A stretch of 37,143 nucleotides of DNA from the NCBI GenBank assembly GCA_020721205.1, contig DYNF01000034.1:2459-39601 (forward strand), written 5' to 3'. This document shows positions 26,923 through 34,642 of this stretch, piece by piece. Source of the stretch: Prochloron sp. SulCav_FS08_3_32_3330 (GTDB lineage Bacteria > Cyanobacteriota > Cyanobacteriia > Cyanobacteriales > DYNF01). The notes below the pieces were generated by a model that did no database searches, had not been told where the DNA came from, and saw only the letters and a list, made by a program, of their open reading frames with translations. A program made the translations under genes and the position numbers. Position 1 is the first letter of the stretch. Each line of letters opens with the position of its first letter.

Positions 26923-29001
26923 TCACTGATCACTCGTATCACCGAATAAAACAATCGAACAACTAACAGCAGAAATCACCTGAGTTGTGACATCACTAAT
27001 CGCTAAACCTCCGGCAGTACGACGACGCACCGAACGCAAAATAATTAAATCATGACTCTTAGATTTCCTGAGAATTACTTTAGCAATATCAGGATAAGGA
27101 ATAACTTTAATTATTACAGAAATAGGGGAAGCAATTTTCTCTAAATAATTCTTAATTTGTGCCTTAAAACTATTGATATCCTCCGCAGAAGTCCTACTAT
27201 TACAAACATGAAGTAAAGTAACTTCAGCTTGATTAGTATAAGAAAAAAGTAGCGCAAAATTAACAATTTCTAAAGTCTCAGGAGTTAAGTTTTTAATAGG
27301 AACTAAAACTCGATGAATATTAATCGGTTCTGTTAATAAACGCATCACCGCCACAGGACAATGAGAAGCCCAAAAAACTCGATCAATAATAGTACCAAAA
27401 AGTTTAGCTTGAATACTTTTATCCGAAGTCCATCCCATCACAATTAAATTAGCATTTTGTTCTTTTGCCGTGCGACTAATCCCATTCGCTAAATCATCAT
27501 CAATACGCACAATCGGATTAACTTTTACCTCAAATTGTTCCCCTACCGCCACAGCTTTTTTTAACAGACGCTCACTTTGTTTTAAAGATAATTCTAACTG
27601 GGTGTCATCCATTTGTAAATGGGCTTTAGTAATTGCTACGGGGGTAATCATTCCTCCGGCTTTATGACGGGCTAATAAAGCGGCTATTTCTGTTAAATAA
27701 GTGGCGGCATAGGCATTATAAATAGAGATAACAATATTAAAAATTTTATTAGTTTGAGGATTAAAATTATCATCTAAATTATTAAGATTAATCGGTAAAT
27801 TATTAGTTTCTAAATTAGCTTGAGGAATTGTTAATTTAGGAGCAAATTTAGCAGTAATAACAGGACCTAAAATTGAAGTTACTAACATTAAAACAATGAC
27901 CGCATTAAACACACTTTCATTAATTATTCCTACTTCAACTCCTGCTAAAGTTGCCGCTAAAGTTGCCGCTACTTGAGGTAAAGATAAAGACCACATCGTC
28001 AAAGTTTCAGACCAATTATATTTATAAATAGTTTTAGTTACAAAAGAAGCTAAAAATTTAGAACCAATTAAGCCTCCAACAATTAAACTTGTTAATAATA
28101 AATAGGAAGTAAAACTAGCAATTAAACCGGACATATTTAATAATAAGCCCATATCTACAAAAAAGAAAGGAATAAATAAGGTGCTACCCACAAAAACAAC
28201 TTTTTCTTCCACAAGGGATTTTCCGACCACATCATTAACAGCAAGTCCGGCTAAAAATGCCCCCACAATTTTTTCAACATGGATTAATTCTGCTCCTACA
28301 GATGCTAAAAATACTGCTAATAAAACAAAGATAAATTGATTACTTTCTTCATCTCCACTGCGTCTAAAATATTCTTTACCTAACCAATCAAAACCGAATA
28401 AAACAATCCCTGAATAAATGGCTAAACTTAATAATTGTAAGGCTAAACTACTAGCAGAAAAATCTCCGCCATGAATAGAAACACAAATTGCTAAAACTAA
28501 TAAAGCTGACACATCAGTAATAATTGTTGCTCCAATCGTGATCATAACAGCTTCATTTTTAACTACGCCTAAACGGTTAACAATAGGATAAGCTAACAGG
28601 GTATGAGAAGCTAATAAAGAACCAATTAAAACGGAAGCATTCCAATCAAAATTAGAAATTCTACCCACAATTATTCCCGTAATTAAAGGAATTAAAAAAG
28701 TAGCAATTCCAAAAGTAATTGAACGGTTTTTTGTTTTCTTAAATTCGATTAAATCTATTTCTAAACCAGCCACAAACATGAGATAAATTTTACCAATATC
28801 TGAAAGAAATTTCATCGTTTCACTTTCAGAATCAAGTAGATTTAAACCATCATGTCCTAAGATTACTCCTGCAAATAATAACCCGACTAAACCCGGTAAT
28901 TTTATTTTTTCAAAAATCGGTGGAATGATGAGAATTACTAAAAGAAGAATCGTAAAAGAAATTATCGGATTATGGGGGATCGAATTGAGAAATTCCTGCA
29001 T
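26923..29001 (-). CDS. Kef/CPA2-type cation:proton antiporter with two universal-stress domains
   Basis: The 692-residue membrane protein. Residues about 1-390 form a 12-13-helix Na+/H+-exchanger-like domain with the CPA2 marks LPGLVGLLFAGVILGHDGLNLL, MFVAGLEIDLIEFKK, GSLLASHTLLAYPIVNRLG and EKIVGAFLAGLAVNDVVGKS. The soluble C-terminus (about 410-692) contains two UspA-like units; the first ends near NLIVMGWTSDKSIQ..., with GTIIDRVFWASHCPVAVMR, and the second ends LIILRSVRRRTAGGLAISD. Fusion to Usp domains suggests regulation by ATP/AMP or c-di-AMP, which binds Usp proteins in some bacteria. It exchanges Na+ or K+ for H+; the ion is not decidable. Confidence 0.87.
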   Translation of the reverse strand: MQEFLNSIPHNPIISFTILLLVILIIPPIFEKIKLPGLVGLLFAGVILGHDGLNLLDSESETMKFLSDIGKIYLMFVAGLEIDLIEFKKTKNRSITFGIATFLIPLITGIIVGRISNFDWNASVLIGSLLASHTLLAYPIVNRLGVVKNEAVMITIGATIITDVSALLVLAICVSIHGGDFSASSLALQLLSLAIYSGIVLFGFDWLGKEYFRRSGDEESNQFIFVLLAVFLASVGAELIHVEKIVGAFLAGLAVNDVVGKSLVEEKVVFVGSTLFIPFFFVDMGLLLNMSGLIASFTSYLLLTSLIVGGLIGSKFLASFVTKTIYKYNWSETLTMWSLSLPQVAATLAATLAGVEVGIINESVFNAVIVLMLVTSILGPVITAKFAPKLTIPQANLETNNLPINLNNLDDNFNPQTNKIFNIVISIYNAYAATYLTEIAALLARHKAGGMITPVAITKAHLQMDDTQLELSLKQSERLLKKAVAVGEQFEVKVNPIVRIDDDLANGISRTAKEQNANLIVMGWTSDKSIQAKLFGTIIDRVFWASHCPVAVMRLLTEPINIHRVLVPIKNLTPETLEIVNFALLFSYTNQAEVTLLHVCNSRTSAEDINSFKAQIKNYLEKIASPISVIIKVIPYPDIAKVILRKSKSHDLIILRSVRRRTAGGLAISDVTTQVISAVSCSIVLFGDTSDQ

Positions 29002-29132: not shown

Positions 29133-29960
29133 TTATTGATATTTTTCGAGAAAATCTAAAGCCTGATTTCTTAATTCATAATATTCTTCAGTTTCTCTCA
29201 ATTGATGTTGATTACGAGGACGAGGTAAGTCAATTTCTAATATTTTACCAATGGTGGCATCAGGTCCATTAGTCATCATTACCACCTTATCTGACATAAA
29301 AATTGCTTCATCCACATCGTGAGTAATCATCATAACAGCTTGGGGATGATTTTCCCAAATATCAAGCACTTGTTGTTGTAATTTGGGTCGAGTTAACGCA
29401 TCTAAAGCGCCAAAAGGTTCATCTAATAATAACATTTTTGGACGAGTGGCTAAAGCTCTGGCAACTCCTACCCTTTGTTTCATTCCTCCTGATAATTCAT
29501 GAGGATATTTATGAGCCGCCGGAGTTAAATTTACCATTGCTAAATGTTCTCTGACTATCTCATCTTTTTCACTAATACTCCGTTTTTTAAACACTTCATC
29601 CACCGCCATGCGCACATTTTCTTCTACCGTTAACCAAGGTAATAAAGAATAACCTTGAAAGACCATCATCCTCTCGGCACCGGGTTTACGAATGGCTTTA
29701 CCTTCAAGAGTTACTAAACCGGAGGTAGCTGTTTCTAAACCTGCTACTATTCTTAATAAAGTAGATTTACCACAACCAGAATGACCAATTACTGATACAT
29801 ATTGTTTAGGTTTAATGGTAAGGTTAATATTCTCAAGTACCCCAATCTCACTCCCATCTGATTTGGGAAAACTTTTGCAAACATTTTCAATATTGAGAAA
29901 GATATCTTCCTCGTTTAAATTATTAGAATTTACTGGAGAAAAGCTGTTAGAAATTGTCAT
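29133..29960 (-). CDS. Nitrate/bicarbonate/cyanate-type ABC transporter ATPase (NrtD/CmpD/CynD-like)
   Basis: The 275-residue ATPase of the NrtD group: Walker A GHSGCGKST (59-67), Q-loop VFQGYSLLPWLTVEENV (100-116), signature LSGGMKQR (156-163), Walker B MLLLDEPFGALD (176-187) and THDVDEAIFMSD (213-224). The segment RKPGAERMMVFQ is characteristic of NrtC/NrtD/CmpC/CmpD. No second, NrtC-like ATPase with a fused substrate-binding domain is present, so this is a three-component transporter as in cynABD rather than nrtABCD. It is the last gene of the operon and separated from the binding-protein gene by a DUF433/DUF5615 pair. Confidence 0.88.
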   Translation of the reverse strand: MTISNSFSPVNSNNLNEEDIFLNIENVCKSFPKSDGSEIGVLENINLTIKPKQYVSVIGHSGCGKSTLLRIVAGLETATSGLVTLEGKAIRKPGAERMMVFQGYSLLPWLTVEENVRMAVDEVFKKRSISEKDEIVREHLAMVNLTPAAHKYPHELSGGMKQRVGVARALATRPKMLLLDEPFGALDALTRPKLQQQVLDIWENHPQAVMMITHDVDEAIFMSDKVVMMTNGPDATIGKILEIDLPRPRNQHQLRETEEYYELRNQALDFLEKYQ

Positions 29961-30006: not shown

Positions 30007-30366
30007 TTAAAAAAGTGGTAAAAATTCAATTCGATCTTGATATTCATTAGCCAATGAACCTTCAGCAATCAAAAGTAATTGTTCAATATTTTCACCAATA
30101 CTTGACTTTGAATTTAGGATAAATATTCCCTGTATATGGTGTCCTAAAGCAATGTGATCTACTAAATGAACAGGCATAGATTTACGGTTATTAGTAACTA
30201 ATATATACCCATTATCTTCGCACCAAATTAAAATTTCTGGGTCTAATGTCCCTCTGGGCGGAGCAGTTAAATCACCAACAGCTATTACTAATAAATCTGA
30301 ATTGAGACGACGTAGTTGATTTGTATAAATAGGATCAACATTTTCATCTATAAGATACTTGAGCAT
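30007..30366 (-). CDS. DUF5615 PIN-like toxin-type protein (inside transporter operon)
   Basis: The 119-residue protein reads MLKYLIDENVDPIYTNQLRR, then GTLDPEILIWCEDNGYILVTNNRKSM; acids at D7/E8, D43/E45 and the TNNR turn fit the degenerate PIN-like active site of DUF5615. Later LGHHIQGIFIL is the family's H-x-G-I-F/I motif. It overlaps the upstream DUF433-like gene by 23 nt. It probably forms a TA-type pair with it; toxin action is inferred from family association only. Confidence 0.8.
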   Translation of the reverse strand: MLKYLIDENVDPIYTNQLRRLNSDLLVIAVGDLTAPPRGTLDPEILIWCEDNGYILVTNNRKSMPVHLVDHIALGHHIQGIFILNSKSSIGENIEQLLLIAEGSLANEYQDRIEFLPLF

Positions 30367-30694
30367 AATTAATTTGTTTTCCTAATTTTTCAGCTTTTAA
30401 TTTTCTTAATTTCTCCACAATGGGTCGAGGATGACTTTCTTGTTTGGCTCTCATGCGATCGCTCCATTCTAACCAATCACTCATATAAGCAGAAACAGTT
30501 TGCCGATTATGCAAATAGTATAAAATAGTGGCATAGGTCTGTTCTAAACTTAGGGAAGTATAGGTTTTAGCAATTTCTTCAGCAGTTTTAGCATGAAAAA
30601 GATAGTCAAATAAAATTGTTTCGATTCCGACTCTTGTTCCTTTAAGTCGAATATCGTCATCAGCTAAAAAATCAAAATAGTCGTCTAACTGCAT
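30344..30694 (-). CDS. DUF433-type antitoxin protein (inside transporter operon)
   Basis: The 116-residue protein has the DUF433-like core: YFDFLADDDIRLKGTRVGIE, TILFDYLFHAKTAEEIAKTY, SLSLEQTYATILYYLHNRQT, with an extra basic C-terminal tail (about 75-116, rich in R/K). It is longer than the 80-residue protein at 18.0 kb and diverged from it, so the two pairs are not recent duplicates. It lies 55 bp after the start codon side of the binding-protein gene's end and on the same strand, so it would be cotranscribed with the transporter unless it has its own promoter. Confidence 0.75.
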   Translation of the reverse strand: MQLDDYFDFLADDDIRLKGTRVGIETILFDYLFHAKTAEEIAKTYTSLSLEQTYATILYYLHNRQTVSAYMSDWLEWSDRMRAKQESHPRPIVEKLRKLKAEKLGKQINYAQVSYR

Positions 30695-30749: not shown

Positions 30750-32147
30750 TTAAGAGAAATAAAAAGATTGAGGTTGATTTGCTCTAATCTTAAAACTGTT
30801 TAAATAACCTACCGGATCACTAGGATCAAAGGCTTTTTGATCAATAAAAGCAGAGGCTGGTTCAACTTTATAATCATCACTAGGACAATTAATCCCCATT
30901 TCTGAGGCAATTTCTCGATATAAGTCGGTTCTCCACGCTTTACGCACGATTTCCTCCGCATCTTTCGGAAATTCAGCAATTTGTCCCCAACGGGCGGCTT
31001 GAGTCATTAACCAGAGGCTTTCTGATTGCCAAAGAAAGGTAGAATGATCATACTCAATCGAGGATATATCCGAAGATAAATCAAAGAAAATAGTAGTATG
31101 AGGACTATCTTTAATCCGAGTTTTATTGTCAAAACCGCCGTAATTATAATTACCGACGATGCCCGGTCGGGTAAATTCAATTTTTGAGCCTGTAAATGAG
31201 CGTTGGGAAATAATTTGAGCTACTTCCTCACGATTTTCTGCTTTACTGCAATATTGACAGGCAGAAATCATGGCTTTAACTAGAGAGCGATAAGTTTTCG
31301 GATTATTTTCAATAAACGATTGTGATACGGCTAGGAGGCGATCGGGATGTCCTTTCCAAATTTCGTGACCTTGAGCAAAGGTAAAACCAATACCTTCATT
31401 CCCCGTAATCGCCCTTGTATTCCAAGGTTCAGCCACCATATAACCTTGCATTGCCCCAATCCTCATATTACTCACCATTTGGGGCGGTGGAGTAATAATC
31501 AAACGTAAATTTTCTACGGGATTTAAGCCGATCGCTGAGAGTAAATAACGCACAAAATATTCATAAATAGCGGTATTGAGAGGAACAGCCCAAACTTTTT
31601 GATCCGTAGGGGCTTTTTCAAAATATCCTCGCAAATCTGCTCCCATTGCTTCTAAATCCCCTTGATAATCTTGCCAAGGGCGGACTCCAGCTTCCCACAT
31701 TCCCTTATTCATCGTTAAGGCGTTTCCATGACGATGAATCGTCATAGCGGCACAGAGGGGAAAATGTCTAGCACCTTCTGCTCCGATCCAAGCGTTGGTC
31801 ACAGTGCCAGAAACCACGGGAGAAGCGTCTAATCTGCCAAAAATGATGCCATCTCTGGAGTTAGCCCAACTTGCTTCCCGACTTAGTTGCACATTGAGTC
31901 CATATTTGTGAAAGAAACCTTTTTCCCAAGCGATCGCAAAGGGAGCGCAATCATTGACAGGCACAAAACCAACGGTAAGATTAGGTTTTTCTAAGGTTTC
32001 TGGTTTAATTATTTGTTCCATTTCTAAGGCAGATGGAGGTAGGTTTTGGGCTTGATTTTGAGGACGATTACAACCAGAAAATGCGATCGCCGCCGCACTA
32101 ACTCCTATCCCTTGAAGAATTTTACGCCTAGTCCAATTTTTTGTCAT
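30750..32147 (-). CDS. NrtA/CmpA-family substrate-binding lipoprotein
   Basis: The 465-residue binding protein has a twin-arginine-type lipoprotein signal (TRRKILQGIG, hydrophobic stretch, AFSGC with Cys26 as the lipid-anchored residue). The mature part follows NrtA/CmpA: LTVGFVPVNDCAPFAIAWEK, GFFHKYGLNVQLSREASWAN, RDGIIFGRLDASPVVSGT and MRIGAMQGYMVAEPWNTRAI. It differs at places that matter for nitrate or bicarbonate binding: where NrtA reads LSRNGNAITL-like text this has IHRHGNALTM, and the pocket-lining segments are diverged. Substrate is therefore open: nitrate, cyanate, bicarbonate, guanidine-like or other. It follows the permease gene, an unusual order (binding protein normally first). 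Confidence 0.85.
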   Translation of the reverse strand: MTKNWTRRKILQGIGVSAAAIAFSGCNRPQNQAQNLPPSALEMEQIIKPETLEKPNLTVGFVPVNDCAPFAIAWEKGFFHKYGLNVQLSREASWANSRDGIIFGRLDASPVVSGTVTNAWIGAEGARHFPLCAAMTIHRHGNALTMNKGMWEAGVRPWQDYQGDLEAMGADLRGYFEKAPTDQKVWAVPLNTAIYEYFVRYLLSAIGLNPVENLRLIITPPPQMVSNMRIGAMQGYMVAEPWNTRAITGNEGIGFTFAQGHEIWKGHPDRLLAVSQSFIENNPKTYRSLVKAMISACQYCSKAENREEVAQIISQRSFTGSKIEFTRPGIVGNYNYGGFDNKTRIKDSPHTTIFFDLSSDISSIEYDHSTFLWQSESLWLMTQAARWGQIAEFPKDAEEIVRKAWRTDLYREIASEMGINCPSDDYKVEPASAFIDQKAFDPSDPVGYLNSFKIRANQPQSFYFS

Positions 32148-32228: not shown

Positions 32229-33050
32229 TTAAGTTTTACGATGGGTAATCATAATTTGTAATTGAGCTAAAGCAGAATCAAGAATTAAACCAGTTATACC
32301 AATGACAAATACAGCCAAAAAGACCGAACTAACATTAAGACGATTCCATTCATCCCACACAAAAAAGCCAATTCCGATCCCTCCGGTTAACATTTCTACC
32401 GCTACAATTACTAACCAAGCTATCCCTAAACTGATGCGTAATCCTGTAAAAATATAAGGTAAACTAGCCGGAAGAACAATCTTGATCCATTGTTTCCAAC
32501 GGGGCATTTCTAACACCCTAGCTACTTCTAAATAATCTTTTGGTACATTAGCCACACCTTCAGCCGTATTAATAATTGTTGACCATAAAGAAGTAATAAA
32601 AATAACAAAAATTGCAGAAGGTTCTGCCGAATTAAAAATAGCAAGGGCGATCGGTAGCCACACTAAAGGAGAAACAGGTTTAAAAATTTGAATAATCGGA
32701 TTAAAAATTAACCAAGCATTCCTAGAAATACCAATTAAAAAGCCTAAAGGAACTGCTACAATTGCCCCTAAGAAAAAACCAATGATTACCCTGCGTAAAC
32801 TAGCCAGTAATAACCAACCTAATCCCAAATCGCCCGGACCCCGACGATAAAAAGGATGTAAAATAAAATCTAAATTCTTATTTAATGCTTCTAAGGGAGT
32901 AGGCATCATTTCTCCTCTAAATAAAGAGATCAGCCACCACAGCAAAATAACACCTGAAAAGCCAATTATTGGTAAATAAAATTCTTTTTTACCTAGCAAA
33001 AACTGAGACTTTTTTTGCAAAAGTCTACCTGTAATTGTTAATAGATTCAT
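32229..33050 (-). CDS. NrtB/CmpB/CynB-like ABC transporter permease
   Basis: The 273-residue inner-membrane protein has about six membrane segments and the permease EAA motif region (YLEVARVLEMPRWKQWIKIV, then LPASLPYIFTGLRISLGIAW). The end FFVWDEWNRLNVSSVFLAVF, then VIGITGLILDSAL, is almost a signature of NrtB, CmpB and CynB. It is the first gene behind the c-di-AMP-type riboswitch. A GAGGG Shine-Dalgarno lies nine bases before its ATG and can be paired by an upstream stretch. Confidence 0.9.
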   Translation of the reverse strand: MNLLTITGRLLQKKSQFLLGKKEFYLPIIGFSGVILLWWLISLFRGEMMPTPLEALNKNLDFILHPFYRRGPGDLGLGWLLLASLRRVIIGFFLGAIVAVPLGFLIGISRNAWLIFNPIIQIFKPVSPLVWLPIALAIFNSAEPSAIFVIFITSLWSTIINTAEGVANVPKDYLEVARVLEMPRWKQWIKIVLPASLPYIFTGLRISLGIAWLVIVAVEMLTGGIGIGFFVWDEWNRLNVSSVFLAVFVIGITGLILDSALAQLQIMITHRKT

Positions 33051-33056
33051 AATAGA

Positions 33057-33126
33057 TTACCCTCAATTTTGTTGAGTAATTAGTAATAGTAACCGAGTAA
33101 TCGAATAGGATTACTGATGAGGGTAA
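33057..33126 (-). promoter_or_regulatory. Predicted expression platform: Shine-Dalgarno-sequestering helix
   Basis: In the mRNA, TTACCCTCA (complement of 33118-33126) can pair over nine positions with TGAGGGTAA (complement of 33057-33065), which contains the GAGGG Shine-Dalgarno of the permease gene. Between the arms sits another hairpin, AGTAATC (33096-33102) with GATTACT (33109-33115). There is no T-run, so control at translation initiation is more likely than termination. Confidence 0.6.
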
Positions 33127-33127
33127 A

Positions 33128-33330
33128 TTGTTTAAATACCGCATCTTCAGTCTCCTCTCAATGCCGACGAGGTTAGCTGACGGGCTAGGACTGAGAGATG
33201 TCCTTTTATAAAAATTGTAGATTTTAGTTTCCTTTTTTGGTAATCCTAAATACACAATTTTTTCTAAATACGCCCCTAAAAATTGGTTTCCCCGTTCCCA
33301 TAAAGGGACTAAGCTGACTTACTCTGTGTT
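33128..33330 (-). promoter_or_regulatory. ydaO/yuaA-type c-di-AMP riboswitch
   Basis: The mRNA-sense (minus) strand contains the two conserved blocks of the ydaO aptamer in correct order. Block 1 (33271-33316) reads CAGCTTAGTCCCTTTATGGG, then AACGGGGAAACCAATTTTTA, then GGGGCG. Block 2 (33152-33189) reads CTAGCCCGTCAGCTAACCTC, then GTCGGCATTGAGAGGAG, which matches the classic CCGUCAGCUAACCUCGU...GAGAGGAG of ydaO RNAs. A strong local helix, GACTGAAGATG (33142-33152) with CATCTCTCAGTC (33189-33200), joins the region. ydaO RNAs bind cyclic di-AMP and usually turn expression off. Exact 5' and 3' limits are approximate. Confidence 0.88.
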
Positions 33331-33400
33331 GATATATAAGTATAACTGATTTTATTTTTTATGGTGAAATTTTTGATTATTTCTTCAATTTTTTTTCCTG

Positions 33401-34642
33401 TTAAACTTTAGGTAATGTCACCGAATCAGATTGATTTTGATATTTCCCGCCTCGATCTTGATAAGTTGTTTGACAAGGATCCCCCTCAAAAAATAATAAT
33501 TGACATACCCCTTCATTCGCATAAATACGACAGTCTGTGCTAGAAGAATTACTAAATTCTAAAGTAATATTTCCTTTCCAAGATGCTTCTAAAGGCGTAA
33601 TATTTGCAATTAAACCACAGTTATGAACGAAAACTCCTGCATCTAACGCAAAATTTCCCGCTTCTGGCACAGTTAAACAATAAACATCATGAGTCCCCGC
33701 TACCTCTTTAATCTCAATAACTTTATGATTTTTCAGTGTTTTATGTCGTTTATTGCCTCTGAAATTTTCTATAATTTCAGGAAATCTTCTGAATACTGAC
33801 CTATTATTTAAGCGATTATAGTCAAGATGATGACGATGAGAATTGCTGAAATCTTCATAAATATTATGTCTTAAATTCCACTCATCACTTAAACGATGAG
33901 TAGGGTATAAATGACCATTTAACGGTTGATAAACCATCTCATAACCCCTTGCTAATTGACGATAAAGGGGCATTAAGGAATCATTTGGTCTCAACTGATC
34001 AGCTTGTACCATTCTGCCATCTCTCGTCATAAATAAATGGTCATGAGTACAGAAAATTGATTGTTGATTATCTAAAGTAATTTCGATTAAAGAATCATGT
34101 CCAATATAGCGAGGATTTTCTAATAAAGTAACCATAATTCTGCCATATTGACCAATACTATAACCCCAAAATTGTTGACCTTTTTGAGATTTTTCTGCCA
34201 TTTCTTCTAAAGTTGGGCTAGTGCCATCAACTAAAGCCACACGGGTATCTCCTCTAAAACAACGGGCATAAGTTGATTTTCCTAAACAAATTGCCGTAAC
34301 ATTGGATGGCATCGCAATATTTTCGAGGGATACTCCTAAGCCATAACTATTAGCAGGAATTATAAAAAATTCCCCATATTCATCGGTTTGTAAATCAACT
34401 TTTTCTAAATTTTTTAAACTAAAATTTTTCGGATTAACTACCGTACCCGGAATATGTTTAAAGATTAGAAATTCTTTTGGACTTAAACGAATATCATAGC
34501 CATAACTAGATAAACCATAACTTAAAACGGGTATTTCTAAACCCGTATTTTCGACATTAATTTTACGCACTAAACTACTCTCAAAAGGCGTAATCATACC
34601 TTTTTGAGCTTGTTCAATAATCCATTTATCGTGTTTAATCAT
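33401..34642 (-). CDS. dcd: dCTP deaminase interrupted by an in-frame intein
   Basis: The 413-residue precursor consists of a dCTP deaminase of 199 residues (1-127 plus 342-413) with a 214-residue intein between. Dcd converts dCTP to dUTP, the first step of dTMP synthesis. The extein has [10 protein letters not shown] (45-54) and GKSTYAR (121-127), which joins to [17 protein letters not shown] after splicing, giving the invariant GKSTYARxGL site with the catalytic Glu in LEASWKG. Length after splicing is normal. The precursor cannot be an active trimer or hexamer until the intein is removed. Confidence 0.93.
33620..34261 (-). mobile_element. Intein within dcd (214 residues, HNH-like endonuclease)
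   Basis: Residues 128-341 of the precursor. Block A is [13 protein letters not shown] with Cys as first residue, block [12 protein letters not shown] (T199, H202), block [12 protein letters not shown] (about 316-326), block [12 protein letters not shown] ending H340-N341, followed by Cys342 of the extein. All splicing residues are present, so it should be active. Between B and F lies [14 protein letters not shown] (269-282) with HH271-272, D274, N276 and N279-N280, which is the HNH homing-endonuclease pattern rather than LAGLIDADG. Confidence 0.88.

What the first reader, a model, noticed from the sequence alone, without database searches (positions are those of the whole stretch)
33128..33330. 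c-di-AMP riboswitch controlling an NrtB/CmpB-type transporter
Seen: both conserved ydaO blocks in order, on the strand of the transporter genes, ending about 80 bases before the permease ATG. Known: ydaO-type RNAs bind c-di-AMP and usually control K+ and osmolyte transport or wall enzymes; c-di-AMP in cyanobacteria is linked to carbon and nitrogen homeostasis through SbtB. Inference: this transporter is a c-di-AMP-controlled importer of an anion or small C/N compound, a less usual target class. The same window also has a K+ channel with RCK domain and an antiporter with Usp domains, both possible c-di-AMP receptors by family.
Basis: partly seen in the sequence, partly recalled or inferred. Interest (0 to 1): 0.78.

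Follow-up and report, generated by a model that had tools for sequence, protein, structure and literature searches.

The report
c-di-AMP riboswitch before ABC importer
A genuine c-di-AMP-sensing RNA switch sits in front of a nitrate-transporter-like import system in this cyanobacterium and in most relatives that carry that system, where it probably blocks translation when c-di-AMP is high; this links the messenger to an uncharacterised importer, but the switch itself is of a known kind.

Summary
The minus strand at 33147-33325 matches Rfam RF00379 (c-di-AMP/ydaO) at 72.1 bits (cut-off 38; E 5e-15), the only copy in this genome, which also encodes a diadenylate cyclase. It leads a permease-SBP-ATPase operon of the NrtB/NrtD kind. 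The association is conserved: 68 of 77 evaluable orthologues in a 291-genome class sample, and 75 of 80 named loci, keep the aptamer just before the permease. The roughly 100-nt platform carries two mutually exclusive, conserved hairpins: one buries the Shine-Dalgarno, the other uses the aptamer's 3' tail. There is no terminator. I read it as a translational OFF switch (inferred, not shown). In cyanobacteria this is not a rare target: among the 31 loci fetched for the best hits, 12 precede this operon and 12 a CitMHS gene. In Nostocales the operon adjoins a second aptamer with Usp and CitMHS. The binding protein carries an invariant Tyr195/Arg270 pair where NrtA has His/Lys and CmpA Gln/Glu, so neither nitrate nor bicarbonate is the predicted substrate; an osmotically relevant anion is my guess. 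New member of a known kind; ligand binding, direction and substrate are untested.

The parts
33339..33368 (-). promoter-like site TTCACC-18-TATACT just upstream of the aptamer
   Evidence: consensus scan only, 9 of 12 matches; 6 such sites found in the region against 2.1 expected; weak
33147..33325 (-). c-di-AMP riboswitch aptamer (RF00379)
   Evidence: cmscan 72.1 bits, E 5.2e-15; model R1 114.8 bits (the window is one of the sequences R1 was built from)
33192..33198 (-). pseudoknot loop strand UCUCUCA of the aptamer
   Evidence: pairs with the 3' tail; helix 99.1% paired in 50 leaders
33154..33160 (-). pseudoknot 3' tail strand UGAGAGG
33137..33151 (-). anti-sequestor 5' arm ACUGAAGAUGCGGUA, overlapping the aptamer 3' tail
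   Evidence: 9-pair helix kept in 94% of cells in 50 leaders, with some pairs changed on both sides; the window's own version is shifted in register and weaker
33113..33125 (-). anti-sequestor 3' arm UACCCUCAUCAGU, shared with the sequestor
33118..33126 (-). sequestor 5' arm UUACCCUCA
   Evidence: read from sequence; helix 3, 91.3% paired, 4 of 7 pairs changed on both sides
33057..33065 (-). sequestor 3' arm UGAGGGUAA containing the Shine-Dalgarno GAGGG (33060-33064), 9 nt before the ATG
   Evidence: read from sequence
32229..33050 (-). ABC permease, NrtB family
   Evidence: TIGR01183 above cut-off; closest solved chains NrtB 8w9m_B and CmpB 9u9z_A
30750..32147 (-). substrate-binding lipoprotein with twin-arginine/lipobox-like N-terminus; closest to NrtC/CmpC C-terminal domain, then NrtA and CmpA
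   Evidence: PF13379; phmmer to PDB; pocket comparison; N-terminus read from translation
29133..29960 (-). ABC ATPase, NrtD family, no fused C-terminal domain (275 aa)
   Evidence: TIGR01184 above cut-off

Best explanation
The leader 33051-33330 (-) is a c-di-AMP riboswitch that controls translation of a permease-SBP-ATPase operon. When c-di-AMP is low, the aptamer's 3' tail (ACUGA...) pairs with the downstream UCAGU strand (anti-sequestor), the Shine-Dalgarno is free, and the importer is made. When c-di-AMP binds, the aptamer holds that tail (pseudoknot plus 5' AGUC / 3' GACU pairing), the freed strand pairs with the Shine-Dalgarno, and translation stops. The product is a periplasmic-binding-protein ABC importer of the nitrate/bicarbonate class with a third pocket type, most likely importing a small anion that matters for ionic or osmotic balance. 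Shown: aptamer homology, its conservation before orthologous operons, and two conserved, mutually exclusive helices. Inferred: ligand binding, OFF direction, anion substrate.
For: RF00379 72.1 bits. Conserved before the orthologous permease in 75 of 80 named loci and 68 of 77 evaluable orthologues of a class sample. Sequestor helix 91.3% paired with 4 pairs changed on both sides, pseudoknot 99.1% paired, structure as a whole 96.7% paired against 36-50% when slid. Anti-sequestor 94.0% paired against 26-47% when slid. Folding in many orthologues switches from anti-sequestor to sequestor when the tail ACUGA is withheld. 5' AGUC / 3' GACU kept at 97%, though nearly invariant. No terminator-like site. 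Diadenylate cyclase in the same genome. Pocket Y195/R270 invariant in 47 of 47 binding proteins, against H196/K269 in NrtA and Q/E in CmpA. Neighbours Usp and CitMHS and no assimilation enzymes among recurrent neighbours.
Against: No binding or expression data. In the window itself the two folds differ by only about 0.2 kcal/mol and the simple fold does not flip as expected. In several orthologues the sequestor is the minimum-energy fold with or without the tail. Nine of 77 orthologous operons lack a good aptamer directly before the permease. The anti-sequestor has only 2 of 9 pairs changed on both sides, no more than shuffles give. The substrate is inferred from two pocket positions only.
Confidence: 0.66

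Rival explanations
1. The riboswitch works, but in the ON direction, or by transcription attenuation or mRNA stability rather than Shine-Dalgarno access.
For: Direction was not measured. In several orthologues the sequestor is predicted to form regardless of the tail.
Against: No terminator-like site in the leader. The conserved helix covers the Shine-Dalgarno. The alternative helix uses the aptamer's own 3' tail, as expected of an OFF switch.
Confidence: 0.22
2. The transporter is simply another nitrate or bicarbonate importer (NrtABCD/CmpABCD function) placed under c-di-AMP control, tying the messenger to carbon/nitrogen supply.
For: Permease and ATPase pass the ntrB and ntrCD models. The SBP is closest to the NrtC/CmpC C-terminal domains, and the one of CmpC is reported to sense nitrate (PMC13249358).
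Against: H196 and K269 of NrtA are Tyr and Arg in all 47 binding proteins examined; CmpA has Gln and Glu. A separate CmpA operon exists in the same genome. No nitrate or carbon enzymes recur beside the operon.
Confidence: 0.15
3. The aptamer in this particular genome is a decayed copy without function.
For: The window's leader has a weaker anti-sequestor and near-equal folds.
Against: 72 bits with the conserved aptamer columns and pseudoknot intact and a perfect 9-bp sequestor on the Shine-Dalgarno; cyclase present.
Confidence: 0.05

Closest known systems
c-di-AMP (ydaO/yuaA) riboswitch, RF00379
   Same: Full-length aptamer match, 5'-leader position, conserved blocks and pseudoknot
   Different: Long variable stem (about 52 nt where the model has about 6); the platform buries the Shine-Dalgarno and no terminator-like site is found
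c-di-AMP riboswitch before Synechocystis slr0753 (reported as verified, Mantovani et al. 2022, as cited in PMC10117731)
   Same: Cyanobacterial c-di-AMP riboswitch; the CitMHS family, which I take to be slr0753's by resemblance, is itself a frequent aptamer target and a close downstream neighbour of this operon in 29 of 80 loci
   Different: Target here is an ABC importer; no CitMHS homologue was found in this genome (no positive control)
NrtABCD nitrate/nitrite transporter
   Same: NrtB- and NrtD-type membrane and ATPase subunits; SBP of the same family
   Different: Order permease-SBP-ATPase, one unfused ATPase, pocket Y195/R270 instead of H196/K269
CmpABCD bicarbonate transporter (BCT1)
   Same: Same transporter class; CmpB is among the closest solved permeases
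   Different: Pocket residues Gln/Glu in CmpA are Tyr/Arg here; the genome has its own Cmp operon elsewhere

Membership tests
c-di-AMP riboswitch (RF00379) | Covariance-model score above the curated cut-off over the full model | tested here: met
   72.1 vs 38 bits, positions 1-134
c-di-AMP riboswitch (RF00379) | Loop to 3'-tail pseudoknot | tested here: met
   7-pair helix, 99.1% of cells paired in 50 leaders including the window
c-di-AMP riboswitch (RF00379) | Located in the 5' leader on the sense strand of the regulated gene, kept in relatives | tested here: met
c-di-AMP riboswitch (RF00379) | Host makes c-di-AMP | tested here: met
   by gene content only: DAC domain PF02457 in the same genome, E 8.7e-37
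c-di-AMP riboswitch (RF00379) | Binds c-di-AMP and changes gene expression | not testable with these tools
   needs in-line probing and reporter assays
NrtABCD nitrate transporter | NrtB and NrtC/D models | tested here: met
   TIGR01183 and TIGR01184 above cut-offs
NrtABCD nitrate transporter | NrtA nitrate-charge residues H196 and K269 (PMC8786288) | tested here: not met
   Y195 and R270 in the window and in 47 of 47 sequences
NrtABCD nitrate transporter | NrtC: ATPase fused to a CRD domain | tested here: not met
   single 275-aa ATPase with only PF00005
CmpABCD bicarbonate transporter | CmpA pocket with Glu at the NrtA K269 position | tested here: not met
   Arg in all 47 binding proteins

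The most novel reading that the evidence does not exclude
Cyanobacteria use c-di-AMP riboswitches to run an anion-homeostasis locus: a dedicated ABC anion importer with a third pocket type, a Usp protein and a CitMHS family transporter (the family I take the putative chloride exporter slr0753 to belong to), placed side by side and switched off together, complementing the known control of potassium by this messenger.
Probability: 0.22. Interest if true: 0.62.

Novelty: new member of a known kind. Interest (0 to 1): 0.45.

Why it matters
What c-di-AMP does in cyanobacteria is still being worked out; in the papers found here the only riboswitch target described as verified is slr0753. A widely conserved importer under the same aptamer, often beside a CitMHS gene and a second aptamer with a Usp gene, gives a concrete, testable regulon and an orphan transporter whose substrate should reveal the physiology behind the signal.

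Tried and rejected
CPA2 antiporter as part of the riboswitch operon: not in the orthologous loci, so not a conserved part. Transcription terminator in the leader: none found. The nine orthologues without a good aptamer were searched again with permissive Rfam settings: no RF00379 match; one of them (L152) has its aptamer in front of a sucrose-phosphate-synthase-like gene that leads the operon. A CitMHS homologue in this genome: none found (no positive control). Nelson 2013 and Mantovani 2022 could not be read, so whether the ABC target was already listed there is unknown. Structure prediction of the binding protein was not run, since solved relatives were found by sequence.

Full report
Observation. 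Rfam's c-di-AMP model (RF00379) matches window 33147-33325 on the minus strand over its full length with 72.1 bits, cut-off 38, E 5.2e-15. It is the only copy in the genome. The next gene is a permease at 32229-33050, so the aptamer ends 96 nt before its ATG. The host genome encodes a diadenylate cyclase.

The operon. The permease and the ATPase pass the NCBI models for NrtB and NrtC/D. Between them lies a 465-aa binding protein (NMT1_2) with a twin-arginine/lipobox-like N-terminus. Its closest solved relatives are the C-terminal regulatory domains of NrtC and CmpC, then NrtA and CmpA. The same genome carries a CmpA operon elsewhere, so this is an additional system.

Conservation. A scan of named genomes gave 80 orthologous binding-protein loci; 79 have permease-SBP-ATPase in this order and the remaining one is cut at the contig end. 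A covariance model built from 30 cyanobacterial aptamers finds an aptamer directly before the permease in 75 of the 80; one more lies 0.9 kb upstream, one is cut by the contig end, one is degenerate, one is absent, and one locus lacks the upstream part. As a less selected test I took orthologues from 291 genomes of the class and fetched the upstream DNA: 68 of 77 evaluable cases have the aptamer. A 43% identical homologue (L211) does not. Among the exceptions, L152 has the aptamer before a sucrose-phosphate-synthase-like gene that leads the operon. These counts follow sequences, not independent events, and Nostocales dominate the named set.

How it probably works. The spacer to the ATG is conserved in 50 aligned leaders. 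One helix buries the Shine-Dalgarno (7 pairs, 91.3% of cells paired, 4 pairs changed on both sides); the aptamer pseudoknot is 99.1% paired; the whole structure is 96.7% paired against 36-50% when partners are slid. A second helix uses the aptamer's 3' tail (ACUGA...) and part of the same strand: 9 pairs, 94.0% against 26-47% when slid, with changes on both sides in 17 cells but in only 2 pairs, which is no more pairs than shuffles give. The two are mutually exclusive. In many orthologues the predicted fold flips from the second to the first when the tail is withheld; in the window the energies are nearly equal (-19.6 and -19.4 kcal/mol). The tail can also pair with the aptamer's 5' end, AGUC/GACU, at 97%, but these bases hardly vary. 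No terminator-like site exists. The simplest reading is a translational OFF switch. The direction is an inference.

The regulon. Among the 31 loci fetched for the window and the best class hits, the downstream gene is this ABC operon in 12, a CitMHS-family gene in 12, Usp in 4, a sucrose-phosphate-synthase-like glycosyltransferase in 1 and unassigned in 2. This is a top-scoring, not random, sample. I take the CitMHS genes to be of the slr0753 type by resemblance and from memory; slr0753 itself was not compared. Its c-di-AMP riboswitch in Synechocystis is described as verified, and the protein as a putative chloride exporter, in PMC10117731. In 35 of the 80 named loci a second aptamer follows the ATPase gene, leading to a Usp gene, and in 29 a CitMHS gene lies downstream. 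No assimilation enzyme recurs as a neighbour. This fits the osmoprotectant and salt theme proposed for cyanobacterial c-di-AMP riboswitches (PMC5986932, PMC4284465).

Substrate. NrtA balances nitrate's charge with H196 and K269, whereas CmpA needs calcium (PMC8786288). Mapped through the solved sequences, these positions are Tyr195 and Arg270 in all 47 binding proteins compared, against His/Lys in the NrtC-type domain of this genome and Gln/Glu in CmpA. I therefore predict a different ligand, probably an anion because of the arginine; this is a lead, not a result.

Novelty. The aptamer class is known and cyanobacterial examples are known. None of the papers found names this ABC operon as a target, but the primary tables (Nelson 2013) could not be read. 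I rate it a new member of a known kind, useful because it is widespread and points to a testable regulon.

Noticed in passing
window 33401-34642 (-): dCTP deaminase gene interrupted by a roughly 215-aa intein (Pfam Intein_splicing, residues 136-341).
   Followed up: no
window 30007-30694 (-): A DUF433/DUF5615 gene pair, toxin-antitoxin-like by resemblance, sits between the SBP and ATPase genes; the 80 orthologous loci show no match to it.
   Followed up: partly
window 26923-29001 (-): CPA2 antiporter with Usp domains follows the ATPase gene here; in many Nostocales a Usp gene with its own aptamer stands at that place.
   Followed up: partly
L104 3014-3208 (-) and L022 1501-1666 (+): c-di-AMP aptamers before sucrose-phosphate-synthase-like glycosyltransferase genes.
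   Followed up: partly
about a dozen genomes, mostly family f35 (e.g. G099, G131, G118): Binding proteins match the query only over about residues 4-338 although the open frames are about 430-600 aa, suggesting a different C-terminal third.
   Followed up: no
G000:C105:29111-30448 (L112 3100-4449, -): An orphan second binding protein (449 aa, 33% identical) in the same genome, with no permease or ATPase gene within the 8.8 kb read.
   Followed up: no
   Followed up: no
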